A DNA stretch of 38,357 nt from Mariprofundus sp. (GTDB lineage Bacteria; Pseudomonadota; Zetaproteobacteria; Mariprofundales; Mariprofundaceae), in assembly GCA_027019785.1 (NCBI GenBank), contig JALUWF010000268.1, positions 1-38,357 of the forward strand, written 5' to 3'. Below the pieces are notes generated by a model that worked only from the letters and a program-made list of their open reading frames with translations, was not told the origin of the DNA and did no database searches. Below are positions 5,667-37,268 of this stretch, one piece after another. The position numbers and the translations under genes are program-made. The stretch's first letter is position 1, and each line of letters opens with the position of its first letter.

Positions 5667-7817
5667 ATGCCCCGCCTGCACCACTTGTTCTCGCTCCTTG
5701 TCGCGCTCGCACTGTTGCCGCTCGTTGCGTCAGATCTGTTGGCCGCGCCGGTGGATATTGATGCTGACCAGATCAGTCGAACTGCCGATGGCGTAGTGAT
5801 TGCACATGGTCATGTGATCATCAAACGCCAGTTCGATACGTTGACGGCCGATGAGGTGACCTACCGAACCCACGAGCATGTACTGGAAGCCAAAGGACAT
5901 GTGATCATCAAATCGGACAAGGCCATGATCACGGCAGAACAGGCCATCATGAGCACCGGCAGCAAAACCGGCCATATGCGCAAGGCTGTCATTACGCTAC
6001 CCGGCGGCGAGCGCCTGACCGCTGAACGGGTGAAGCGCATTGATGATCAAACCTACGAAGCGGATGAATTGACCTTCTCTTCCTGCCCGATTGATCAGGA
6101 ATCATGGCGTATTGCGGCAAAACATGCGGTGCTGGACGAGCAGGACGGCAGCCTGCGCGCCAGCCACAGTCGCTTCGAGCTGTGGGGCGTTCCTGTGCTG
6201 TACACGCCGTGGTGGCAACAGTCGCTAAAAAGGAAAAGTGGCCTGCTGACCCCTTCTGTTGGCAGCGGCAAACGGCGTGGCACCGAGCTGGCCCTGCCAT
6301 ACTATTTTGCGCCGGCGGACAACTGGGATGTCACGCTGACGCCGCACTGGATGAGCGCGCGTGGTTTAATGGGCGAGGGAGAGCTGCGTCATGTATCTAC
6401 CTGGGGCAGGGAAATGATTGATGTGGCCGGCATCAATGATACGGTAACCGGCACCAATCGCAGCCGTTTGCGGGGTGACCTGCACTGGCGTCTGCCGGCG
6501 AATTTGCAATTGGATGCACACGCCGATCATGTGAGCGATCATGATTATCTCGCTGATTACGCCAGCGGCAGGACAATCAGTTCCATCTATCTGCAAAGCA
6601 TGGCGACACTGTCGCAACCGCTGCAGTTCAACACACAGCAATATGGCCGGGTTCAGGGCGACTGGCAGGTGCAGGCCGCCCATCAACAGAATCTGCTGTT
6701 AACCAGCAATGCCGCAACACTGCAGATCGTGCCACGCATCCAGAGCAATCTGCAGTGGGCACCTTCCGCCCATCCCACCTTCCCCCATGCAATCTTGCAT
6801 TTTGATCAGCAAAGCACCCGTTTTGTCCGGCGCAGCGGCGTCGATGGCTGGCGGGTTAATCTGCATCCCTATGTGGAAATACCATGGCAACTGACCGGAG
6901 GTGGCATATCGGCCACCGCGCGCGGGGGGCTACAACATACGCGTTACTGGTTGAATCAGCCGACGGCGCTGGGTGATACCACGCCGAGCCGAACCACCGG
7001 TGAAGCCAGCCTGCAGGTTCGTTCCGATTTCGAACATATAGGCAGCGACCGAACATGGCGGCATGTAATTTCACCCATTGTACGCTACGATTATGTTGAT
7101 GCTCCCAACCAGTCCGCACTGCCAAATTTTGATTCGGCGTTCGGCCTGATGAGCTGGAGCAACCTGCTCTCCGGCAACCGCTTTTCCGGCTATGACCGTA
7201 TCGAAAAAACAAGTCGTATCAGTGTGCTGCTGGAGAGCCGGCTGCAATCGAAGCCGGCGGTTTCAGCCGCCGCTCGCGATATCCTCATTGTCCGGGCCGG
7301 AGGTGCCTACGACCTGTTGCGCAAAAGTGTGGATAATGCCCTGCAACCGGCCCCTACGCGGCCATTCTCCAACCTGCTCGGAGAGTTGATTTGGCAACCT
7401 GTCGCCGGGGTGCGTTTCTACACTAGCGGCCAGTACAACACGGCGGTGCGCTACTGGGCCACCTTTAATTCATCCGTGGACTGGACCGTATCGCCGGGTA
7501 ACAAGCTCCATGCCGGCTATCGTTTTACTGATGCGCGTTATTTCAGACGAGCCCAGTTACTTGATCTGCGCGCCAGCACCCGCTTGGCTACCCGCTGGCA
7601 GGCAACAGGCCGGGTGCAATATGATCTGGCGCTAAAATTATCACAACAAACCGCTATCGGACTACAATATAGTCATGCCTGTTGGCGGCTCGGTGGCGAG
7701 GTTTATCGCGTCAACCGGCGCAGTGGCACCACGACAGCGGCCAATTTTGGCTTCCATCTGTTGCTCGAATTCAAGGGGCTGGGTAGCGTTGGTTCCTGCC
7801 CTGGCAGTGCTTCCTGA
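5667..7817 (+). CDS. lptD: LPS-assembly protein LptD
   Basis: 716-residue outer-membrane protein that, with LptE, inserts lipopolysaccharide into the outer leaflet. Features: a signal peptide ending near LLAAPVD; an OstA/LptA-like periplasmic domain (about 30-130) with repeating units ADEVTYRTHEHVLEAKGHV; the conserved LTFSSCPIDQESWRIAA segment; the ELWGVPVLYTPW and KSGLLTPSVG...LPYYFAPADNWDVTLTP blocks that open the C-terminal barrel; and a final strand ending near residue 710. It is somewhat shorter than E. coli LptD (784). Cysteines are few (CP near 145, CW near 671, one near the C-terminus), so the disulfide pattern may differ from E. coli. First gene of lptD-surA-pdxA. Confidence 0.93.
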   Translation: MPRLHHLFSLLVALALLPLVASDLLAAPVDIDADQISRTADGVVIAHGHVIIKRQFDTLTADEVTYRTHEHVLEAKGHVIIKSDKAMITAEQAIMSTGSKTGHMRKAVITLPGGERLTAERVKRIDDQTYEADELTFSSCPIDQESWRIAAKHAVLDEQDGSLRASHSRFELWGVPVLYTPWWQQSLKRKSGLLTPSVGSGKRRGTELALPYYFAPADNWDVTLTPHWMSARGLMGEGELRHVSTWGREMIDVAGINDTVTGTNRSRLRGDLHWRLPANLQLDAHADHVSDHDYLADYASGRTISSIYLQSMATLSQPLQFNTQQYGRVQGDWQVQAAHQQNLLLTSNAATLQIVPRIQSNLQWAPSAHPTFPHAILHFDQQSTRFVRRSGVDGWRVNLHPYVEIPWQLTGGGISATARGGLQHTRYWLNQPTALGDTTPSRTTGEASLQVRSDFEHIGSDRTWRHVISPIVRYDYVDAPNQSALPNFDSAFGLMSWSNLLSGNRFSGYDRIEKTSRISVLLESRLQSKPAVSAAARDILIVRAGGAYDLLRKSVDNALQPAPTRPFSNLLGELIWQPVAGVRFYTSGQYNTAVRYWATFNSSVDWTVSPGNKLHAGYRFTDARYFRRAQLLDLRASTRLATRWQATGRVQYDLALKLSQQTAIGLQYSHACWRLGGEVYRVNRRSGTTTAANFGFHLLLEFKGLGSVGSCPGSAS

Positions 7818-17139: not shown

Positions 17140-18162
17140 CTATTTATCCCGACCGAAAGCTGACGTGACGGGCCGCAGATGCAAGTCATCCCGCTCTCTG
17201 TAGAGTCGGCAGCGTGACAAATCAAGTCCGCCACGCCCACTTTTTTTGGTCCACGTCTCAACCATGATAATATGCCGGCGACCCGGTGTCACACCGTCGC
17301 CCAGTAGTTGAAGCATGCATTTTTGCAATAATCGAGCCCGTGCCGATGGTAAAGCATCGACCCAGACCGCCCACGGCAGGCAGAGCCCGGTTTCGGTCCG
17401 GCTTAGTTGCTGCATCAACACATCAACAACCGCATCAAGACGCGCCGCCACGCATTCGGCCTGCCGCTGCCACCTGAGAAACAGTTCGTCCGGGGCGACA
17501 CCCGCCTTCGATATGGCGGGGAACAGTCGATGCCGAATCCGATTGCGCCAGATACGCAGATCACGGTTGCTCGGATCATCCAACCAGTCGATGCCTGCTT
17601 GCGCCATAGTCTGCCGTATGGTGCTTGCAGGAAGATGCAACAACGGACGCACAATGCGCAGATGTCCGATCCGACGTTCGCGCCACATGCCCCGACATCC
17701 CACTGAGCCAGCCCCCTGCAACAGGCGCATGCAGACGGTCTCGGCCTGATCGTCCCGGTGATGGCCCAGGCAGAGCGTCGCCAACTGATATTGCCGACTC
17801 CATACTTGAAATTGCGCATACCGCCCGGTCCGCGCCTCCGCCTCACTGGCATGTGAAGCGACCGCCAAACGGGCTGCGACAAAAGCAATACCCCATGCCT
17901 CTGCCTGTTCGGCCAGTTGCTCTGCCTCCCGCGCCGAAGTGTCGCGCCAGCCGTGATCAACATGCCATGCCATAACCTTGCGCCCGCTGCATACAAGCGC
18001 CAGCAACAGCGCAGTCGAATCTGCCCCGCCAGACCAGCCAACAGCGACGCTATCCGGCAAATCTGGCATATCCGCTGCGCTCAGCCACGTCTTGCACGTA
18101 TCGCTGAACGTGTCATTCAACGCATCCCCGAATGCATCAATGCGTCGAAACGTACGCATCAT
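17140..18162 (-). CDS. tilS: tRNA(Ile)-lysidine synthase TilS
   Basis: 340-residue PP-loop ATPase that converts C34 of the AUA-reading tRNA-Ile to lysidine. The PP-loop is VGWSGGADSTALL (SGGADS at 44-49); further family marks are HVDHGWR, LGHHRDDQAET, RPLL and WLDDPSNRD followed by RNRIRH. E. coli TilS is longer (432); here the C-terminal domain is shortened to a stub. Its ATG overlaps the stop of the upstream 750-residue protein by 4 bases, and ftsH follows 120 bases later, as in several proteobacteria where tilS or ftsH cluster with folP. Confidence 0.93.
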   Translation of the reverse strand: MMRTFRRIDAFGDALNDTFSDTCKTWLSAADMPDLPDSVAVGWSGGADSTALLLALVCSGRKVMAWHVDHGWRDTSAREAEQLAEQAEAWGIAFVAARLAVASHASEAEARTGRYAQFQVWSRQYQLATLCLGHHRDDQAETVCMRLLQGAGSVGCRGMWRERRIGHLRIVRPLLHLPASTIRQTMAQAGIDWLDDPSNRDLRIWRNRIRHRLFPAISKAGVAPDELFLRWQRQAECVAARLDAVVDVLMQQLSRTETGLCLPWAVWVDALPSARARLLQKCMLQLLGDGVTPGRRHIIMVETWTKKSGRGGLDLSRCRLYRERDDLHLRPVTSAFGRDK

Positions 18163-20411
18163 GCCCAGCGCATCAGGCCGCGTTCAATGATGCAGGCGGT
18201 CGCCGGAGCATCTGCATCCATCAATTCAAAGATATCCGTATCCACACCGGCCAGATTTGTCTTGCCCGCCTTGATCAGCAACCACGGCGCTTCATCGTCA
18301 TAGCCAAAGCGCTGGATCACCAGCAACTCCAGCCCGCCGGCAGGCATCTGATAACCGTCCAGCACCCCAGCAATTTCCGCTTGCTGCGGTCGCACGCTGC
18401 GGATGGAGGCTTTATTGCCCAACACTGCAGTCAATTCGGTGAGGGCGGATTCAGTCAGGGCGAAACCGCTATTATATAGCATCTGCACACGGTTGCCTGC
18501 CCCTGTGTTGACAGTTTTGATATGCACCTGACCCAACGGAGCCACGCCTTTGCCTCCATCGCTCGACATCACCTGCTTCGCATTATGGTCACGGCGTACG
18601 CCAGCGCTGACTTGCGGTATAGCCAGTGAAAAGGCGATGCGCTGTAGCCCCAATTGCGGGTGATTCAATTCTGAAAATGACCATTCGCCGGTCATATCCA
18701 TACACATCGACAACGCCGGCATGCCAACATCTTCAATACATGCATCATGTTGTTCCAGCGCCAGCACCAGCCATTGGCGCAATCGTCGGCGCAGATCAAT
18801 ACCCGCTTGCGCCAGTGCCAGCACCGAGCCGCGCAAGACGCATCCGCAGGCCGAACAGTGATCGAGAAACAGGTATTCACGTTCATCCACCAAGGTTAGC
18901 AGACCCGGTAAAAATGTTTTGGCCATAAAATCAGCCGCATGACCGCCATACAAGGCATGCATTCTGGCCAGATATTCGGACCACTCGATATTCAGGCAGC
19001 CCTGACGCTGCGACAACACCTGACCGCTATGCAGCGCTCTGGTCACATTCGACTGAATTAGCACCAGTTCCCCGTCTTTCCATGCTTTCTCCAGCACTGC
19101 ATCCGATTCACCGCCAACACCTTTAGCGACATGGCCGCTGCGTAAACCACCAGCACTACGTAAGCCGCTACTGCGTAGTCCTGAAATCTGACCTGCTGTA
19201 CCGCTTGCCTGTTTTTTGTGAGCCAATTGCTCTTTGCGATCCAGCCATGATGTTTCCGAACGCCGCCTTGCCACCTCGACTTTGACATCTTCATCAAACA
19301 CCCGAAATGCCATCAGGGTGATATTATCCTGTAACCACGGTTCACCCACCGCCTTGACAGCCCTGCCGCCTGCCATGCTCGCCAGCAACCATTTGGCGAC
19401 CGGCGTGGCATGGTTGGCATTCAGATTTTCCATGGCCGCTTCATCGGGCTGAAGCTGACCGGCCAGCAACTGATCAAGCCGCTTGGCATGCAGGACATAA
19501 CGCATCCAGCCACCGAAATTGCTGTCCATGCCAAGCTTCCACAATGACAGTCGCGCCCATGTCCGCCGTTGCAGATGCGCCCCCAGCTTATCTCTGGCCA
19601 GCAGTTGCAACATGCCGCCTTCATTGTGCATGCCCACTTTGGCGCGCAATTGACGCATACGCGGCACAATCTCCGGCTCCAGTCCGTAGGCGCGGATTAT
19701 GCGGCTGTCATCGCCGAGCAGCGATGCATCCGGCTGATACTGTAAAAATGCCATGGGGGTGGCGGGCAACATCATCGACTCATAGGTGGCGATGCGCGTT
19801 ACCTCAACCACGCCTTCCAGATAGCGTTTGAGAAAATGTTGCAACGCCCATACATAGAGTCCGCCAACCACGCACAGCATCACATGGCTGGTCTGGTCGG
19901 CATGTTCATCAGACAATCCGGCAATCGCACGGCGAATCAGTTTTAACAACAGCACATTGATAGCAGGCACCCAGGGCGCAGCATCCGCCTGATCCTGTTT
20001 CCAGCCCTGCTCCCACATCACTTCGCAAACATTCAACAGCGCCGTCGCGCCCTTTGGGTCGGCGCACCAGTGGTGTAGCAGATCGCGTGACAAATGTGGA
20101 TTCTGCTTGCGCAGATAGGCCACCATGCGCCGCACCTTCTCATCCATATGCGGCAAGGTATGGGCCGAAACTTTCTCCCCCTGCACCACATAGCGCACTG
20201 CATAGGCCTGTAATTTACGCAACGCAGTCGCAATGGTCCGCTCCACATCCGGCTGCACTGCATAGGGAATATACTCACGCGCCTGTGCGCCCGGCACGCG
20301 AATCGGTAAGCGCTGAACATCCACAGCACAGCGGTCGGCTGGCTGCTCCTGCCGATTCAGAATGGGCCGGTACCAGCTCCAGCGGAATGAAAAATAATCG
20401 GGCGAAATCAT
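18159..20411 (-). CDS. Large protein of unknown function (750 aa)
   Basis: I do not recognise this protein. It appears soluble: no signal peptide and no clear membrane helix. The N-terminal third is helical and rich in Trp and Arg (DEKVRRMVAYLRKQN, GGLYVWALQHFLKRYLEG). The middle has MAGGRAVKAVGEPWLQDNIT followed by LMAFRVFDED. At 410-426 is a Ser/Gly/Arg repeat linker (SGLRSSGLRSAGGLRSG) that looks like a hinge between two halves. The C-terminal half contains FLDHCSACGCVLRG, CMDMTGEWSF and a NSGFALTESALTEL stretch; its layout loosely recalls a degenerate nucleotide-cyclase fold, but the catalytic residues are not evident, so I do not assign it. It heads the tilS-ftsH-folP-cdaA-cdaR-glmM string and is divergent from znuA across 105 bases. 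Confidence 0.75.
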   Translation of the reverse strand: MISPDYFSFRWSWYRPILNRQEQPADRCAVDVQRLPIRVPGAQAREYIPYAVQPDVERTIATALRKLQAYAVRYVVQGEKVSAHTLPHMDEKVRRMVAYLRKQNPHLSRDLLHHWCADPKGATALLNVCEVMWEQGWKQDQADAAPWVPAINVLLLKLIRRAIAGLSDEHADQTSHVMLCVVGGLYVWALQHFLKRYLEGVVEVTRIATYESMMLPATPMAFLQYQPDASLLGDDSRIIRAYGLEPEIVPRMRQLRAKVGMHNEGGMLQLLARDKLGAHLQRRTWARLSLWKLGMDSNFGGWMRYVLHAKRLDQLLAGQLQPDEAAMENLNANHATPVAKWLLASMAGGRAVKAVGEPWLQDNITLMAFRVFDEDVKVEVARRRSETSWLDRKEQLAHKKQASGTAGQISGLRSSGLRSAGGLRSGHVAKGVGGESDAVLEKAWKDGELVLIQSNVTRALHSGQVLSQRQGCLNIEWSEYLARMHALYGGHAADFMAKTFLPGLLTLVDEREYLFLDHCSACGCVLRGSVLALAQAGIDLRRRLRQWLVLALEQHDACIEDVGMPALSMCMDMTGEWSFSELNHPQLGLQRIAFSLAIPQVSAGVRRDHNAKQVMSSDGGKGVAPLGQVHIKTVNTGAGNRVQMLYNSGFALTESALTELTAVLGNKASIRSVRPQQAEIAGVLDGYQMPAGGLELLVIQRFGYDDEAPWLLIKAGKTNLAGVDTDIFELMDADAPATACIIERGLMRWA

Positions 20412-23098: not shown

Positions 23099-23908
23099 TC
23101 ACTGGGTTCGCACTATCACTATCACCGCTATCAATAATCCGGCAGACAGTGATGCAAAGACAACTTTAAGGGCCGGACGGAGCACCGACTCGGGCACGCT
23201 GTTGTGCAGGCGCGCCGACCAGCTGCTGCTTTTGGGCAGAATAAGCAAAATTCCCAGCCATGCGCCAGACAGAAACAACAGCTGGCCGTCCAACACATCG
23301 CGCCAACGATTCTCCAGCAGCATGTTGATGGTGATAGCGCCCAGCGCCATCATCAGTCCGCACAGGGCCGAGGTGCCAACAGCAAAGCGCAATGCCACAA
23401 AACGGCGCAGCAATGGCGCCAACATGGTGCCGCCGCCAATACCCAGCGCACCGGAAACAAAGCCGATGGGGCCGGAAAACAGCGAAAGAGACAGGCGACT
23501 GACCGAGCCATGCTTTGCTTCCCGGCCATAATCGAAAGCAATCCATGCATCTAATGCTGCCAGCGCCAGCAACACCCATGCATCGGGCAGTCGCAGGGTG
23601 ATCCATAAGCCCAGTCCGGCGCCGATGATGAGTCCGGGCAGCAATTGTGTTGCCGCATGGTTATCGATATGTCCGAGACGCCAGTGGGCGCGGGCTGAAA
23701 AAAAGCCGGTAATCACCACCGCGACCAGACTGGCGAACACCTGCACGGCAACCCCTTCAGTTGACCTTGGCATGCAGGCGTAAAACAGCGGCATATAAAT
23801 CAGGCCACCGCCCACCCCTGCCAGGCCGGCCAGCGTGCCGGCGACCGCACCCGCTGCGAGTCCGACCGCCAAACCATACAGCAACAGGGACAGATCAATT
23901 TCAGGCAT
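23099..23908 (-). CDS. TauE/SafE-family membrane permease
   Basis: 269 residues from ATG 23908; the track start at 24094 runs back through the upstream gene and is rejected. About eight membrane helices with two Gly-rich repeats typical of TauE/SafE proteins: GLAGVGGGLIYMPLF in the first half and GALGIGGGTMLAPLL in the second. Members export or import small sulfur or carbon anions (sulfite, sulfoacetate, taurine-derived compounds); the substrate here is unknown. It overlaps by 8 bases a small upstream gene, so the two are translated together. Confidence 0.88.
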   Translation of the reverse strand: MPEIDLSLLLYGLAVGLAAGAVAGTLAGLAGVGGGLIYMPLFYACMPRSTEGVAVQVFASLVAVVITGFFSARAHWRLGHIDNHAATQLLPGLIIGAGLGLWITLRLPDAWVLLALAALDAWIAFDYGREAKHGSVSRLSLSLFSGPIGFVSGALGIGGGTMLAPLLRRFVALRFAVGTSALCGLMMALGAITINMLLENRWRDVLDGQLLFLSGAWLGILLILPKSSSWSARLHNSVPESVLRPALKVVFASLSAGLLIAVIVIVRTQ

Positions 23909-24167
23909 GTGGGGCCAGTTCAGCAGATGTAGGGTTTGAATGCTTGAACAGCAGGTAGCGCTGATACTCTTCCAGACCCATCTTGCCCTGAACATAGAGC
24001 TGCTGGTCGGCCAGCGTGTCTGCATCGCTGATGCCATGCTGCCGATTATGGGCATCCGCAACAGCCATGCGCTGGTTAATTTCATCATCAACAATCCCGC
24101 TTGAACGCTGCATAGCCACTTCGCGCCACTCGGAGGAGTTGGAATATTGACTCTTATTTCGGCTCAT
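23901..24167 (-). CDS. Small hypothetical protein linked to TauE (VbhA-antitoxin-like C-terminus)
   Basis: 88 residues from ATG 24167 (track start 24254 rejected because it is upstream of the natural MSRNKSQ start and in the divergent intergenic DNA). Charged, helical, no membrane segment. The segment DADTLADQQLYVQGKMGLEE recalls the short C-terminal helical motif of antitoxin VbhA-like proteins, which inhibit Fic toxins, but no Fic gene lies nearby. Its 3' end overlaps the TauE gene by 8 bases, which argues for co-expression. Function is not assigned. Confidence 0.6.
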   Translation of the reverse strand: MSRNKSQYSNSSEWREVAMQRSSGIVDDEINQRMAVADAHNRQHGISDADTLADQQLYVQGKMGLEEYQRYLLFKHSNPTSAELAPHA

Positions 24168-24324
24168 GAGCCAGATAATACAGCGATTGAACGCATAGTC
24201 GAAACTCAAGGCATCGAGGCGGCCGGGGACGTTGAAAAATTGACGCCACAACATTCGGAGGTTCAGTCTGAGGGGTGCGGAGGAGGCATCGCTTCACCGA
24301 CATTCAAGCAGCAAGGAGTTTCAG

Positions 24325-25191
24325 ATGATGGAACACAAGAAACGCACCAAACTCAGATCACAGCAAAACCAGAGCATCCAGCGCTATTCATGCATGGATG
24401 TCCACTACGAGGATCATCTCAGGTTGGCTTGGTTATCCATGAACGCAAAGCCTGTGCCCTGCTTTACACCGGCACTTAGCCAAGAGATTCAGCACTGGTA
24501 TAGCTTGTTGCGGGAGCAGAAAGCTCCCGAGTATCAAGGCATCCGCTATATTGTCTCCACCGGCGCTCAGGGTGTCTACAATCTGGGTGGCGACCTGAGC
24601 CTCTTCTGCAAACTGATTGAGCAACAGGATCGACAAGGATTACTGGACTATGCCATTGCCTGCAACGATATCCTGTACAGCAATCACACCGGCATTAACG
24701 GTGAAATAACAACGATCGCGCTAGTGCAGGGCGATGCGTTGGGCGGCGGCTTTGAGGCGGCAGTATCCAGTGAAGTCTTGATTGCCGAGCGTAGCGCCAA
24801 AATGGGACTGCCCGACATCCTCTTCAATCTATTCCCCGGCGCAGGTGCTTACAGCCTGTTGTCGCGAAAAATCGGCATGGTCGAAGCCGAACGACTGATT
24901 CTCAGTGGCAAGTTGTACACGGGTGAACAGATGCATGCGCTCGGCGTGGTGGATATTCTGGCTGAGGATGGTCAGGGCAAACAGGCGGCTTACGATTATA
25001 TCAAAAGAGAGAGCCGATTACGCAATGGTTATCGCGCTTTCCGAAAGGCCAAACGTTGTACCAATCCGCTCACGTTTGAAGAATTACGTAATGCCGCGTT
25101 TATCTGGGTCGATGCAGCATTCCGGCTTGAAAGCAAAGACCTGAGAATGATGCAACGGCTGGTGAAGCGGCAAATGGCAAGATCAGTCTGA
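24325..25191 (+). CDS. rpfF: RpfF-like DSF synthase (crotonase family)
   Basis: 288-residue crotonase-fold enzyme. RpfF makes the diffusible signal factor, a cis-2-unsaturated fatty acid, by dehydrating a 3-hydroxyacyl-ACP and releasing the acid. RpfF-specific blocks are clear: YNLGGDLSLF (85-94), ALVQGDALGGGFEAAVSSE (132-150) and KMGLPDILFNLFPGAGAYSL (159-178). The first catalytic glutamate of Xanthomonas RpfF (Glu141) corresponds to Glu144 here. The second (Glu161) corresponds to Asp164 by simple residue counting, a conservative change at an active-site position. The start is supported by AAGGAG 6 bases upstream. It is convergent with an rpfC-like kinase, as rpfF and rpfC are in Xanthomonas, and separated from it by hairpins. 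Confidence 0.88.
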   Translation: MMEHKKRTKLRSQQNQSIQRYSCMDVHYEDHLRLAWLSMNAKPVPCFTPALSQEIQHWYSLLREQKAPEYQGIRYIVSTGAQGVYNLGGDLSLFCKLIEQQDRQGLLDYAIACNDILYSNHTGINGEITTIALVQGDALGGGFEAAVSSEVLIAERSAKMGLPDILFNLFPGAGAYSLLSRKIGMVEAERLILSGKLYTGEQMHALGVVDILAEDGQGKQAAYDYIKRESRLRNGYRAFRKAKRCTNPLTFEELRNAAFIWVDAAFRLESKDLRMMQRLVKRQMARSV

Positions 25192-25195
25192 CTGC

Positions 25196-25237
25196 AGTAA
25201 TGCATACTCCGGATTGACATCCGGAGTATGCATTACT
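25196..25237. terminator. Perfect 19-bp hairpin between rpfF and rpfC
   Basis: AGTAATGCATACTCCGGAT, a 4-base loop TGAC, and the exact reverse complement form a 42-base perfect hairpin that begins 5 bases after the rpfF stop. There is no T-run, so it is not a textbook intrinsic terminator. It would still be a strong mRNA 3'-end stabiliser or block on either strand. Confidence 0.7.
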
Positions 25238-25268
25238 CATTGCAGAAAGGACCTATGGCACACGCACC

Positions 25269-25297
25269 CCCGGCTTATTAATCATAAATAATCCGGG
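25269..25297 (-). terminator. Hairpin directly after the rpfC stop codon
   Basis: CCCGG.TTATT and AATAA.CCGGG flank a short loop, an 11-position stem with one mismatch. It starts at the base after the rpfC TAG. Probably the 3' end of the rpfC transcript. Confidence 0.5.
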
Positions 25298-27772
25298 CTA
25301 GGCGTTCATGCGTTGCACATATGCTTGCAATGCGGAACATCCCCGTTGAAATGCGTGTCGCAACTGTGCTGTATAGTGCGCCATATCATCGCCATCCAGT
25401 ACATCCCGTTGAGATTCAATTTCGATGCAGAGTGACACAACGCTCTGGACACCCAATGTGGCAGCGCTGCCTTTAAAACCATGCACACGTTCAAGAAATT
25501 GACTGGTTTGTCCCAAGCGGGCAAGGGCATCGAGTTGCGCCAGATGCTCTCTGCCACTGGAGAGAAAAGACTGAAACAGATGTTGCCGTTTGTGCGGTGA
25601 AATGATCATGCTGAACAACTCATCAAGCGTATCTTCATGAAGCGTCGTCTCCGATTTGGTATCTGCCTGGGCTTCTATATGCACGATATCGGAATGGACA
25701 TCGCTATGGGCATGCTCCGCTACCTTCTCCAATAATGTGGCCATCTGTACCGGCTTGGTGATATAATCATTGGCTCCGGCGTGCATGCATTCCCTAATGG
25801 TATTCGGCAAGGCATCGGCGCTGAGCATTAATACCGGCGTGCTGGCGCTGGTATCCATAAATCGGAATTGTTTGAGCACTTCTAATCCACTGACTTTGGG
25901 CATATTCATATCCAACAGAATCAGATCGAATGTTGCATCGTTGGCCAACATATCGAGCGCTTGCTCGCCATCTCCGGCCAGAGACACCCGGTGACCGGCT
26001 TGCCTTAGTACGGCGAGGATGACCTCCTGATTCACCGGGTTGTCTTCTGCAAGCAGAATATGTAGCGGATTGGCTGCCTGTTTTCGTTGCAAGACTTCAA
26101 CCATGGAAATCACATCATCGGAATGATGCACGACACTTGCTGCGTGCAGTGCGTTAAATAATAGCCTATCCTGCACAGGAGGATGTAACACGGCAGCAAA
26201 CCCGCCTGCAATCATGGCCGCATCTGTCGTGCGCTGCTGATCCAGTCCAATCAGAATCATATTCAAGCCGGCCAGTTCCTGTTTGTCGCGAACAGCTCGG
26301 GCCATAACCTCAGGCTTACAATGCAAAGCATGCATATCCAGAATCAACACATCAAAGCCCTGCCCCGACGACCATGCATCCACCAGCATGGATAATACCT
26401 GTGTTTCTTCATGCACCAACGCCACATGCACGCCCCAGCCTTGTAGCAATAGTTCCACCGATGCGTCGGTTTTTTCGACGTCTGAAAGCAATAACGCATG
26501 CAACCGTGAGAGTGCCTGCTCCCCGTTTTGCTCTGCCTGCCGTTCAAATGGCAGCTCTATGGTAAACGTACTGCCCTTATCCAGCTTGCTGACCAAAGAT
26601 ATACGCCCCCCCATCAGTTCAGCCAGGTTTTTTGCAATCGTGGTGCCCAGCCCGGTACCACCAAAACGGCGTGTGATGCTACTGTCGGCCTGCGTAAAAC
26701 GCTCAAAGATCATAGACTGTTCCTCATCGGACATGCCGATACCGGTATCGCGAATGCAAAAATGAAGCCGTGTTGAATCTTCGGCCACTTCGATCATTTC
26801 CACCACGATATCCACGCCTCCCTGCTGGGTAAATTTCACTGCATTACCAATGATATTGACCAGGATTTGTTTCAGCCGTTTCGGATCACCCAGCAGTGCA
26901 TAGGGCGCTTCGGGATCAAGTAACAGATTCACACCAATACCTTTGTCTATGGCCTGCGCTTCAAACATGGCGACCACGGCATGCATCAGTTGATGCAGAT
27001 CAAACGCTTCATCCGCCAGTTCCAGCTTGCCCGCTTCGATCTTGGATATATCCAAAATGCGCTCAATCAAACCCAGCAGGTGATAGGAAGAATCCCTGAT
27101 GACATTGGCAAAATGCATTTGTTCGGGGGTCAAATTAGAACTCCGGGACAGATCATTCATGCCGATAATGCCATTGAGCGGCGTCCGCAGTTCGTGGCTC
27201 ATATTGGCGATAAAGCGGGATTTGGCTTCATTGGCTGCCTTGGCTGCATCAATGGCATGGTTCAGCTTTCGAATCAGGCTGGCCATAAACATCGGCACAA
27301 CAGCAAGAATAATCAGCATGGACAGCACCAGCCCTATATGCTGATGCCAGAATGGTGCCAACAGGGTGATCGGTAAAAATGCTGCTAACGATAGCAACGT
27401 AGTATAAATCAGGTACTTCAGACCGAACCTGAAACCGTTGCCGGTAATCACCCACAGATAGATAGTAACAAATACTACGCCATCTTCACCTTCCGCCAAA
27501 ATCACGCCGAGCGAAATCATTGCAATATCAGCTGTTATGCCGAGCAGCCTGCGAGTACGATTCTTTTCCGGTGAGATCAGAATCCACGCCAATATGCCCA
27601 GCGCGACAGGCAGATAGGCCAGACTCAGGTAACAGGCCAGATCAGGGCCTGTAAAACAGAAATAGATGCTGATTAATACGGCAATCAGGATACGGAACAG
27701 CGTTTGTTCATGCTCGCTGTCCGGTCTGTTTTGCAGGCGTTCCTTCACCCAAATCAGCCTTTTTGTTGTCAT
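25298..27772 (-). CDS. rpfC: RpfC-like hybrid sensor kinase (5TM-HisKA-HATPase-REC-HPt), DSF receptor
   Basis: 824 residues. The input region has about five or six membrane helices (25-165) with little periplasmic sequence, then HisKA with ANMSHELRTPLNG (His193), ATPase boxes including RDTGIGM and RRFGGTGLGTTIAKNLAELMGG (the GLGTTIAK form is typical of RpfC), a degenerate receiver (about 424-545) without a clear acidic pocket, a full receiver (about 569-685, AEDN, Asp621, Lys673) and a C-terminal HPt domain (VHGFKGSAATLG, His764). RpfC senses DSF and, in Xanthomonas, also binds RpfF through its receiver to limit signal output. The usual partner RpfG (HD-GYP response regulator) is not in this window. 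The gene begins only 32 bases after the stop of the small Cys gene that ends the SUF operon. Confidence 0.87.
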   Translation of the reverse strand: MTTKRLIWVKERLQNRPDSEHEQTLFRILIAVLISIYFCFTGPDLACYLSLAYLPVALGILAWILISPEKNRTRRLLGITADIAMISLGVILAEGEDGVVFVTIYLWVITGNGFRFGLKYLIYTTLLSLAAFLPITLLAPFWHQHIGLVLSMLIILAVVPMFMASLIRKLNHAIDAAKAANEAKSRFIANMSHELRTPLNGIIGMNDLSRSSNLTPEQMHFANVIRDSSYHLLGLIERILDISKIEAGKLELADEAFDLHQLMHAVVAMFEAQAIDKGIGVNLLLDPEAPYALLGDPKRLKQILVNIIGNAVKFTQQGGVDIVVEMIEVAEDSTRLHFCIRDTGIGMSDEEQSMIFERFTQADSSITRRFGGTGLGTTIAKNLAELMGGRISLVSKLDKGSTFTIELPFERQAEQNGEQALSRLHALLLSDVEKTDASVELLLQGWGVHVALVHEETQVLSMLVDAWSSGQGFDVLILDMHALHCKPEVMARAVRDKQELAGLNMILIGLDQQRTTDAAMIAGGFAAVLHPPVQDRLLFNALHAASVVHHSDDVISMVEVLQRKQAANPLHILLAEDNPVNQEVILAVLRQAGHRVSLAGDGEQALDMLANDATFDLILLDMNMPKVSGLEVLKQFRFMDTSASTPVLMLSADALPNTIRECMHAGANDYITKPVQMATLLEKVAEHAHSDVHSDIVHIEAQADTKSETTLHEDTLDELFSMIISPHKRQHLFQSFLSSGREHLAQLDALARLGQTSQFLERVHGFKGSAATLGVQSVVSLCIEIESQRDVLDGDDMAHYTAQLRHAFQRGCSALQAYVQRMNA

Positions 27773-35641: not shown

Positions 35642-36502
35642 ATGTTATATCCTGACGATACACAACCAATCCCGGCTCATGCCGGGATTGGTCTGCGTGC
35701 GCCGCATATTGCGCAGGTGATTGAGCACTTGCCGTCAGTGACATGGTTTGAGGTGCATAGTGAGAACTATTTCGTCCAGGGCGGTGAAATGCTTCGTCAG
35801 CTTGCTGCTGTGCGCGAGCACTATCCGATCAGCCTGCACGGCGTTGGATTATCACTGGGCAGTGGAGACCAACAATATCGTGCACACATGACCCAATTAA
35901 AAACACTGATTGATAATGTACAGCCGGGGCTGGTTTCGGAACACATTAGTTGGGGCGGCGCAGGCCAATTTCATCTCAATGCCCTGTTGCCATTGCCCTA
36001 TACTGAGGAAGCGCTGGATGTGATGATTGAGCATGTGGATACAGCGCAATCGTTTCTGAAACGACAAATTCTGGTTGAAAATGCCTCGACATATCTGGAA
36101 TACGCCCACTCCACCATGCCAGAATGGGAGTTTGTCACCGAACTGGTGCGCCGCACCGGCTGTGGTCTGCTGCTCGATGCGAATAATATTTACGTCAATA
36201 GCATCAATCATGGCTTTGATCCCTTACTGTTTATTGATGCTGTTTGTGCCGAAACAGTAGGGGAGATGCATCTGGCCGGCTTCTCCCGCAAAGAGGGCTT
36301 GCCGGTACCGCTATTGATTGATTCGCATGATCATCCGGTCTATCCCGAGGTGTGGGAGTTGTACCGGCAAACTGTGCAGCGCATCGGCATCAAACCGACG
36401 CTGATTGAATGGGATACGCACATCCCTGAATTTTCCGTTTTACAGGCCGAAGCCGACAAAGCCGAGGAGGTGATGCATGCACACTGCGCCATCACTTGCT
36501 GA
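35642..36502 (+). CDS. bufB: MNIO-family (DUF692) peptide-modifying oxidase, BufB-like
   Basis: 286 residues, TIM-barrel multinuclear non-haem iron oxidase. Putative iron-ligand positions occur along the barrel: GIGLRAPH, WFEVHSENYF, SLHGVGLSLG, VSEHISW, LVENASTYL, GLLLDANNIYVNS, EMHLAGFS, IDSHDHPV and IEWDTHIPEF. MNIO enzymes such as MbnB use iron and oxygen to convert cysteines of a peptide substrate. The substrate is presumably the upstream 84-residue precursor, 36 bases away. The DUF2063 gene overlaps its 3' end by 26 bases, matching the need of these enzymes for a partner that presents the peptide. Confidence 0.93.
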   Translation: MLYPDDTQPIPAHAGIGLRAPHIAQVIEHLPSVTWFEVHSENYFVQGGEMLRQLAAVREHYPISLHGVGLSLGSGDQQYRAHMTQLKTLIDNVQPGLVSEHISWGGAGQFHLNALLPLPYTEEALDVMIEHVDTAQSFLKRQILVENASTYLEYAHSTMPEWEFVTELVRRTGCGLLLDANNIYVNSINHGFDPLLFIDAVCAETVGEMHLAGFSRKEGLPVPLLIDSHDHPVYPEVWELYRQTVQRIGIKPTLIEWDTHIPEFSVLQAEADKAEEVMHAHCAITC

Positions 36503-37268
36503 ACTACAAAATAATTTCATGGCCAATGTGTTGCATGGCGACAGCGCCATCGAGTCACACATCGAGACCAATGGCTTGCCTGCATCACAACGCATGCAAA
36601 TATATCAACATATTGTGGAAAACACATTGACCGAAGCCCTGCAAACCAGTTATCCGGCCTTGCGACTGCTGGTCGGCGATGATTTTTTCGATGTGGCGGC
36701 TGATCGCTATATGCGCCAATATCCGCCCATAAGCGGCAATCTGCAGGATTACGGCGTGCAGTTTTCTGAGTTGTTAGCGAACATGGAAGAGGCTGCTTCG
36801 CTCGCTTATCTGCCCGATACCGCCCGACTGGAGTGGGCCAGACAACTGAGTTTTCTTGCCGCAGACGCTGAGGCGCTGGAGGCATCGGAAACTGTATTTC
36901 GACTGCAATATCTGGGCAACAGCCCGATGCAAATGATGCTGCATCCATCCGTGCAACTGGTGCGCTCATCGCACCCGATATTCGATATCTGGCATTACTG
37001 CATGCAACCGTCTGAACAACCGCTACAACTGGATGCAGCAGGGCAGTCTGTATTGTTGTGGCGCGATGGCGTTCAAATTGCCATGCAGACCATGGATGCT
37101 CCGGCCACAGCATTCTTGCACGCCGTACTGGACGGTATGGAGATGCATCACGCCTTTGGCGCCGTACAGGCGCAGGGGCATGCCGATTTTGATCTGTCTG
37201 AACTGCTGCCATTTCTGGTGGCCAACCAACTTGTTATTGATATTCACGCCATAGGGGCATCCACATGA
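36477..37268 (+). CDS. bufC: DUF2063 (HvfC/BufC) partner protein
   Basis: 263 residues. The N-terminal half carries the DUF2063 helical domain: QRMQIYQHIVENTLTEALQT and SYPALRLLVGDDFFDVAADR, then YMRQYPPISGNLQDYG. The C-terminal half is a beta-rich winged-helix-like part that in this family recognises the precursor leader and hands it to the MNIO. The ATG has GAGGAGG 6 bases upstream inside the preceding gene. It overlaps the DoxX gene by 4 bases. Its role as peptide-presenting partner comes from characterised MbnC/BufC relatives, not from the sequence alone. Confidence 0.88.
   Translation: MHTAPSLAELQNNFMANVLHGDSAIESHIETNGLPASQRMQIYQHIVENTLTEALQTSYPALRLLVGDDFFDVAADRYMRQYPPISGNLQDYGVQFSELLANMEEAASLAYLPDTARLEWARQLSFLAADAEALEASETVFRLQYLGNSPMQMMLHPSVQLVRSSHPIFDIWHYCMQPSEQPLQLDAAGQSVLLWRDGVQIAMQTMDAPATAFLHAVLDGMEMHHAFGAVQAQGHADFDLSELLPFLVANQLVIDIHAIGAST

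What the first reader, a model, noticed from the sequence alone, without database searches (positions are those of the whole stretch)
24325..27772. DSF quorum-sensing pair (rpfF/rpfC) outside its classic hosts
Seen: a crotonase with RpfF-specific blocks is convergent with a hybrid kinase of RpfC architecture (multi-helix input, HisKA, ATPase, two receivers, HPt, with GLGTTIAK). Known: RpfF makes cis-2 fatty-acid signals and RpfC senses them. The layout is as in Xanthomonas but without rpfG or rpfB here. In a non-pathogen this would point to fatty-acid signalling in an unexpected niche.
Basis: partly seen in the sequence, partly recalled or inferred. Interest (0 to 1): 0.7.

Follow-up and report, generated by a model that had tools for sequence, protein, structure and literature searches.

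The report
Fatty-acid signalling pair with swappable specificity
This marine iron-oxidising bacterium carries a genuine enzyme-and-receptor pair of the DSF fatty-acid signalling type, and comparing its relatives suggests that the enzyme and the listening end of the receptor change together while the rest of the receptor stays put, as if bacteria were switching signal dialects.

Summary
Window 24325-25191(+) encodes an RpfF-type crotonase, convergent with an RpfC-type hybrid kinase at 25298-27772(-). The host is a Mariprofundus-like zetaproteobacterium. The pair outside xanthomonads is not new: it is published for Methylophaga, Thiobacillus and Leptospirillum, and I found it in dozens of genomes, usually with rpfG. 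Zetaproteobacteria keep rpfF><rpfC (30 of 33 loci; the other three stretches hold no rpfC) but nearly all lack an adjacent rpfG. No RpfG-like REC-HD-GYP was found in the host genome (94.6% complete).

Two things look new. (1) The window RpfF replaces the second catalytic Glu by Asp (D164 = Xcc E161) and the pocket Met by Ala (A173 = Met170). The two changes always occur together, only in Zetaproteobacteria, with three origins on the tree. (2) RpfF and the RpfC input domain co-vary, while the kinase core follows genus. Close relatives show two islands of divergence, rpfF and the rpfC N-terminus, in otherwise ~85-95% identical DNA. Thiobacillus-like genomes show the same. This resembles pherotype polymorphism of ComQXPA; I found no report of it for DSF systems. 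Signal chemistry and specificity are inferred, not shown.

The parts
24325..25191 (+). rpfF-like gene: DSF-synthase-type crotonase, 288 aa
   Evidence: PRK08788 344 bits over cut-off 177; phmmer to Xcc RpfF 2e-54; Foldseek top hits are RpfF
24754..24756 (+). codon of Glu144 = catalytic Glu141 of Xcc RpfF (conserved)
   Evidence: alignments
24814..24816 (+). codon GAC of Asp164 = catalytic Glu161 of Xcc RpfF (substituted)
24841..24843 (+). codon GCA of Ala173 = pocket Met170 of Xcc RpfF (substituted, always together with Asp164)
   Evidence: role of Met170 from PMC9864630
25298..27772 (-). rpfC-like gene: hybrid sensor kinase, 824 aa
   Evidence: Pfam, PDB sequence hits, conserved neighbour of rpfF in relatives
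27248..27772 (-). RpfC input domain (aa 1-175): short N-terminal sensor helix and membrane helices; the part that co-varies with RpfF
   Evidence: AlphaFold model pLDDT 94, helices 2-14, 20-41, 44-66, 72-92, 95-116, 118-138, 146-208; co-variation
27704..27727 (-). R-P-D-S-E-H-E-Q (aa 16-23): all five residues needed for DSF sensing in Xcc RpfC (R15, D17, S18, E19, Q22)
   Evidence: residues from PMC5391125
27287..27289 (-). Phe162 of RpfC: Phe in all 13 receptors paired with D/A-type RpfF; Tyr in 56/56 non-zetaproteobacterial RpfC
27029..27226 (-). HisKA (phosphoacceptor His193)
26543..26890 (-). HATPase_c
26138..26485 (-). degenerate receiver-like region (about aa 430-545), not recognised by Pfam
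   Evidence: no match; inference from position and sequence
25721..26059 (-). canonical receiver domain
25352..25579 (-). HPt domain

Best explanation
The locus is a DSF-type fatty-acid signalling pair of a zetaproteobacterium. RpfF converts a 3-hydroxyacyl-ACP into a free cis-2-unsaturated fatty acid (or a close relative). The RpfC input domain senses it at its membrane-proximal N-terminal segment and drives a His-Asp-His phosphorelay to an unlinked response regulator, because the usual RpfG is not adjacent and no REC-HD-GYP was found in this genome. The signal-specific parts, RpfF and the RpfC input domain, evolve and are exchanged together, while the kinase core is inherited with the lineage. 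The window carries the 'D/A' specificity type (Asp164/Ala173 in RpfF, Phe162 in RpfC), which probably makes and hears a signal different from that of the 'E/M' type. Shown here: homology, gene layout, residue patterns, the mosaic. Inferred: catalysis, ligand, direction of phosphotransfer, signal difference.
For: RpfF identity by profile, sequence and fold. All five DSF-sensing residues kept in RpfC (PMC5391125). Convergent pair in 30/33 zetaproteobacterial loci and 59/73 others. Coupled E-to-D and M-to-A/I: 80 E/M, 10 D/A or D/I, none mixed; 15 against 19 in Zetaproteobacteria; three origins, one clade rejected p-AU 0.003. Input-domain tree groups by RpfF type (3 changes; genus 13); core tree groups by genus (7 changes) and scatters type (7 changes). 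Partial correlation RpfF~input given core 0.54, p 2e-4; only input-domain blocks carry it strongly, in two independent data sets. DNA islands: G087/G088 flank 94%, rpfF 54-70%, core 77-97%, input 44-51%; also G096/G097, G085/G082, G067/G081a, Thiobacillus-like L117 against L120/L130. Reverse case window/G007: RpfF 93%, input 81%, core 59%.
Against: No activity, ligand or cross-talk was measured. The RpfF, input and core trees all reject one another, so exchange is not as one intact module. Only three origins of the D/A type exist, too few for a sign test. The window keeps the D-S-E sensor motif although its RpfF is D/A type. A catalytic Glu-to-Asp change could weaken the enzyme. Many genomes are draft MAGs.
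Confidence: 0.7

Rival explanations
1. An ordinary DSF pair. The N-terminal membrane part of RpfC and RpfF simply evolve faster than the kinase core; no change of signal specificity is involved.
For: Sensor domains of kinases often diverge faster than cores (general knowledge). Mean identity of the input blocks is 30-47% against 52-67% for HisKA/HATPase blocks among Zetaproteobacteria.
Against: The input domain is as conserved as the core, or more so, when the RpfF type is the same (window/G007 81 against 59; L125/L120 93 against 80). At similar core identity (0.65-0.67) the input is 0.36 for different-type and 0.52 for same-type pairs. The degenerate receiver is equally fast (0.31-0.37) but shows no co-variation.
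Confidence: 0.17
2. The D164 RpfF no longer makes DSF. It works as a thioesterase or only as a regulatory partner of RpfC, as catalytically dead RpfF can in Xylella.
For: Glu161 is described as essential for DSF synthesis and is Asp here (PMC9864630). Dead RpfF variants still support signalling in Xylella (PMC4504480).
Against: Glu144, the oxyanion glycines, Trp261 and the rest of the fold are kept. The change is conservative, always coupled with Met-to-Ala/Ile and matched by changes in the receptor, which suggests retuning rather than decay.
Confidence: 0.1
3. The mosaic is an artefact of chimeric metagenome assembly.
For: Most genomes compared are draft MAGs; G081 carries both types on different contigs at about 5% contamination.
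Against: The islands lie inside single contigs at the same two places in many pairs. The single-contig genomes G008 and G012 follow the same rule: core 71%, input 47%, RpfF 57%; DNA 72/53/61%.
Confidence: 0.02
4. A plain enoyl-CoA hydratase next to an unrelated hybrid kinase.
For: Pfam alone says only ECH_1 and a hybrid kinase.
Against: Profile, sequence and fold all place it with RpfF; the adjacency is conserved across phyla.
Confidence: 0.01

Closest known systems
RpfF-RpfC(-RpfG) DSF system of Xanthomonas campestris
   Same: Convergent rpfF and rpfC; RpfF fold and Glu141 equivalent; RpfC input-HisKA-HATPase-REC-HPt; the five DSF-sensing residues of the RpfC sensor.
   Different: No adjacent rpfG, rpfB or rpfH; no REC-HD-GYP found in the genome; Glu161 is Asp and Met170 is Ala; an additional degenerate receiver-like region in RpfC.
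rpf clusters of Leptospirillum, Methylophaga, Thiobacillus, Acidithiobacillus ferrivorans
   Same: RpfF and RpfC homologues in non-pathogens, including iron oxidisers.
   Different: These usually keep rpfG next to rpfC and all those compared have Glu/Met in RpfF.
RpfF-RpfR system of Burkholderia and Cronobacter
   Same: RpfF-type synthase (5fus, 6dgn; 34% identity in the fold alignment).
   Different: The receptor here is a membrane hybrid kinase, not PAS-GGDEF-EAL.
ComQXPA pherotypes of Bacillus subtilis
   Same: Signal-making genes and the N-terminal membrane part of the receptor kinase are polymorphic while the cytoplasmic kinase is conserved (PMC4008528).
   Different: Peptide signal and Gram-positive host; unrelated proteins. 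Functional groups are proven there, only inferred here.

Membership tests
RpfF (DSF synthase) | RpfF-type crotonase by profile and fold | tested here: met
   PRK08788 over cut-off; Foldseek top hits all RpfF/DfsA
RpfF (DSF synthase) | NCBIfam RpfF equivalog cut-off (NF053515, 550 bits) | tested here: not met
   230 bits; A. ferrivorans and Methylophaga RpfF also fail it (242-248 bits), so the cut-off fits xanthomonad RpfF only
RpfF (DSF synthase) | Catalytic Glu141 | tested here: met
   Glu144
RpfF (DSF synthase) | Catalytic Glu161 | tested here: not met
   Asp164: hence 'RpfF-like'; works-like claim kept, strict membership not claimed
RpfF (DSF synthase) | Makes cis-2-unsaturated fatty acid from 3-hydroxyacyl-ACP | not testable with these tools
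   needs enzyme assay
RpfC (DSF receptor kinase) | Input-HisKA-HATPase-REC-HPt order | tested here: met
RpfC (DSF receptor kinase) | Five transmembrane helices in the input domain | tested here: inconclusive
   model shows one short and six long helices; no PDB relative
RpfC (DSF receptor kinase) | Sensor residues R15, D17, S18, E19, Q22 | tested here: met
   R16-P-D-S-E-H-E-Q23
RpfC (DSF receptor kinase) | Binds DSF; receiver binds RpfF | not testable with these tools
   receiver similar to 3m6m_D
Rpf/DSF system of the Xanthomonas kind | rpfF convergent with rpfC | tested here: met
Rpf/DSF system of the Xanthomonas kind | RpfG (REC-HD-GYP) partner | tested here: not met
   none adjacent; genome has REC-GAF-HD-GYP, a lone HD-GYP and a broken one; genome 94.6% complete
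Rpf/DSF system of the Xanthomonas kind | RpfB acyl-CoA ligase | tested here: inconclusive
   six AMP-binding proteins elsewhere in the genome, not assigned
Pherotype (specificity group) system | Synthase and receptor input co-vary, kinase core does not | tested here: met
Pherotype (specificity group) system | Communication works within but not between groups | not testable with these tools
   needs cross-activation assays

The most novel reading that the evidence does not exclude
DSF systems have pherotypes: the RpfF synthase and the RpfC input domain form a co-evolving, recombining specificity module. In Zetaproteobacteria a recurrent Asp/Ala active site makes a chemically distinct fatty-acid signal that only matching receptors hear, with output through something other than RpfG.
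Probability: 0.4. Interest if true: 0.82.

Novelty: new variant of a known kind. Interest (0 to 1): 0.62.

Why it matters
DSF signals are usually treated as a broadly shared language in which product differences come from substrate supply rather than from the synthase (PMC4504480). A co-varying synthase/receptor-input module with a recurrent active-site change would mean that DSF systems diversify into private dialects, as peptide systems do. It gives exact residues and natural chimeras to test fatty-acid signal specificity, and puts such signalling in the marine iron-oxidising bacteria that build iron mats.

Tried and rejected
Ordinary enoyl-CoA hydratase: rejected by fold and profile. Novelty of the host range: rejected, the literature already lists non-pathogens (PMC4504480, PMC8357829, PMC9040811). 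RpfG elsewhere in the genome: searched with a zetaproteobacterial RpfG (L043), no full-length match in G000; the REC-GAF-HD-GYP at C288 gave the best partial match but similar proteins are present irrespective of rpfF. Single origin of the D/A type: rejected, p-AU 0.003. Strict co-inheritance of RpfF and input domain: rejected, trees reject each other, though each prefers the other over the core tree (by about 511 and 300 log units). Independent-pairs tests gave no significance because only three pairs exist. Fold search with the RpfC input domain: nothing significant. Searches for papers on DSF pherotypes (none) and on RpfF/RpfC co-evolution or specificity polymorphism (one review, whose only relevant passages concern AHL specificity and Bacillus polymorphism).
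Full report
WHAT IS THERE. ORF 24325-25191(+) (288 aa) and ORF 25298-27772(-) (824 aa) are open and convergent with 106 bases between them. The first scores 344 bits against NCBIfam PRK08788 (cut-off 177) and 230 bits against the RpfF equivalog (cut-off 550, not met). A. ferrivorans and Methylophaga RpfF also fail that cut-off, so it fits xanthomonad proteins only. Best solved relatives are 7zq7, Xcc RpfF 3m6m, and the RpfF/DfsA entries 6dgn and 5fus. The AlphaFold model (pLDDT 89) matches 3m6n/3m6m with TM 0.92, and every RpfF/DfsA entry ranks above ordinary hydratases. The second protein is input domain-HisKA-HATPase-REC-HPt, with the phosphorelay residues in place.

HOST. The window's genome is therefore a member of Mariprofundaceae, in the same genus as the record named Mariprofundus. 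This is inference from kinship codes and shared contigs.

DISTRIBUTION. Of 73 non-zetaproteobacterial loci, 59 have rpfC convergent with rpfF and 46 of these have an HD-GYP gene in the flank. Of 33 zetaproteobacterial loci, 30 have the convergent pair, the other three stretches hold no rpfC, and only one (G027) has an HD-GYP gene beside it. The host-range point is therefore already known in kind (PMC4504480, PMC8357829, PMC9040811). I found no paper describing it in Zetaproteobacteria.

OUTPUT. The genome (94.6% complete) contains a REC-GAF-HD-GYP protein near flagellar genes, a lone HD-GYP and a broken one. A zetaproteobacterial RpfG query found no full-length REC-HD-GYP. There are 16 GGDEF and 65 receiver matches. 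The output is unknown; an unlinked regulator is inferred.

RECEPTOR SENSOR. In Xcc RpfC, R15, D17, S18, E19 and Q22 are needed for DSF sensing (PMC5391125). The window RpfC has R16-P-D-S-E-H-E-Q23, so all five are kept. Across 75 receptors E19 and Q22 are nearly invariant and the others vary. The input domain models as a short helix plus six long helices (pLDDT 94) and has no solved structural relative.

ACTIVE-SITE CHANGE. The second catalytic Glu (Xcc E161) is Asp164, and the pocket Met (Xcc Met170, described as a contact for the DSF precursor, PMC9864630) is Ala173. In 90 RpfFs the two positions are E/M 80 times, D/A 9 times, D/I once, never mixed; all D are zetaproteobacterial. In a wider zetaproteobacterial set there are 15 D/A or D/I and 19 E/M. 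Further positions shift in all three D clades: 52, 257, 258, 266. On a tree built without the key columns, D/A has three origins in every bootstrap tree, and one clade is rejected (p-AU 0.003). If three changes at site 173 fell at random by branch length, hitting the same three branches has probability about 3e-5. A formal independent-pairs test cannot reach significance with three pairs.

MOSAIC. The RpfC core (aa 176-824) tree follows genus (7 changes) and scatters RpfF type (7 changes). The input-domain (aa 1-175) tree groups by RpfF type (3 changes) and not by genus (13 changes). Distances: RpfF against input given core, partial r 0.54, p 2e-4. In 60-aa blocks along RpfC, only the three input blocks show a strong partial correlation with RpfF throughout (0.41-0.54 in Zetaproteobacteria; 0.31-0.54 in 56 other genomes). 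The core blocks are mostly near zero, with a weaker signal at HPt, which lies next to the rpfF 3' end. The equally variable degenerate receiver shows none, so this is not just fast evolution. In topology tests the input data prefer the RpfF tree to the core tree by about 511 log units and RpfF prefers the input tree to the core tree by about 300, but all three trees reject one another: exchange is linked, not rigid.

DNA VIEW. G087 against G088: flank 94%, rpfF 54-70% after its first 150-300 bases, core 77-97%, input 44-51%, beyond mostly 82-94%. The same two islands appear in G096/G097, G085/G082 and G067/G081a, and in Thiobacillus-like L117 against L120 and L130, where rpfG is again similar. 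The reverse occurs for window/G007: RpfF 93%, input 81%, core 59% (protein). G017/G008/G012 form a control trio: core 69-72% in both comparisons with G017, but rpfF 74 against 60 and input 65 against 51 for same and different type. G008 and G012 are single-contig genomes, which speaks against assembly chimeras.

RECEPTOR MATCH. RpfC position 162, in the last membrane helix, is Tyr in 56/56 non-zetaproteobacterial receptors and 14/16 E/M partners but Phe in 13/13 D/A partners. Position 101 is Phe in 13/13 D/A partners and 3/16 E/M partners. The sensor motif x-P-E-x-x-Q-S occurs in 8/13 D/A partners and 1/16 E/M partners; the window keeps D-S-E.

MECHANISM, WITH STATUS. Shown: homology, layout, residue patterns, mosaic. 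From literature on family members: RpfF dehydrates 3-hydroxyacyl-ACP and cleaves the thioester (PMC4504480, PMC9864630); RpfC is activated by DSF at its N-terminal segment (PMC5391125). Inferred: the window pair does the same; the Asp/Ala site retunes substrate or product; receptors match; output is not RpfG. The comparison with ComQXPA pherotypes rests on PMC4008528, where the ComP N-terminal domain is variable and its cytoplasmic part conserved.

VERDICT. A real DSF-type pair, ordinary in kind, in a host group where I found no earlier report, with an unusual active site and a co-varying specificity module that I did not find described for DSF systems.

Noticed in passing
window 23901-24254 (-): Small protein divergent from rpfF, conserved beside it in several Mariprofundus-like genomes; no Pfam match.
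   Followed up: partly
window 18159-20411 (-): 750-aa protein without any Pfam match between the tilS-like gene and a zinc-uptake cluster.
   Followed up: no
window 35642-37268 (+): MbnB/TglH/ChrH-type RiPP-modifying enzyme followed by a DUF2063 protein: possible small peptide-modification locus.
   Followed up: no
L184 (G020), L185 (G023), L186 (G018): RpfC-like receptors in genomes where no RpfF was found: possible listeners without a synthase, or draft gaps.
   Followed up: partly
L245 and L249 (G081): One Ghiorsea MAG carries two rpfF-rpfC pairs, one of each active-site type, on different contigs; contamination about 5%.
   Followed up: partly
L048 6150-6890 (-) (G031): A separate REC-HPt protein is encoded next to rpfF in this genome: a candidate extra phosphorelay partner.
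   Followed up: partly
L053 (G000 contig 6), about 6023-6470: An HD-GYP gene in the window's own genome is split over two frames and looks broken.
   Followed up: no
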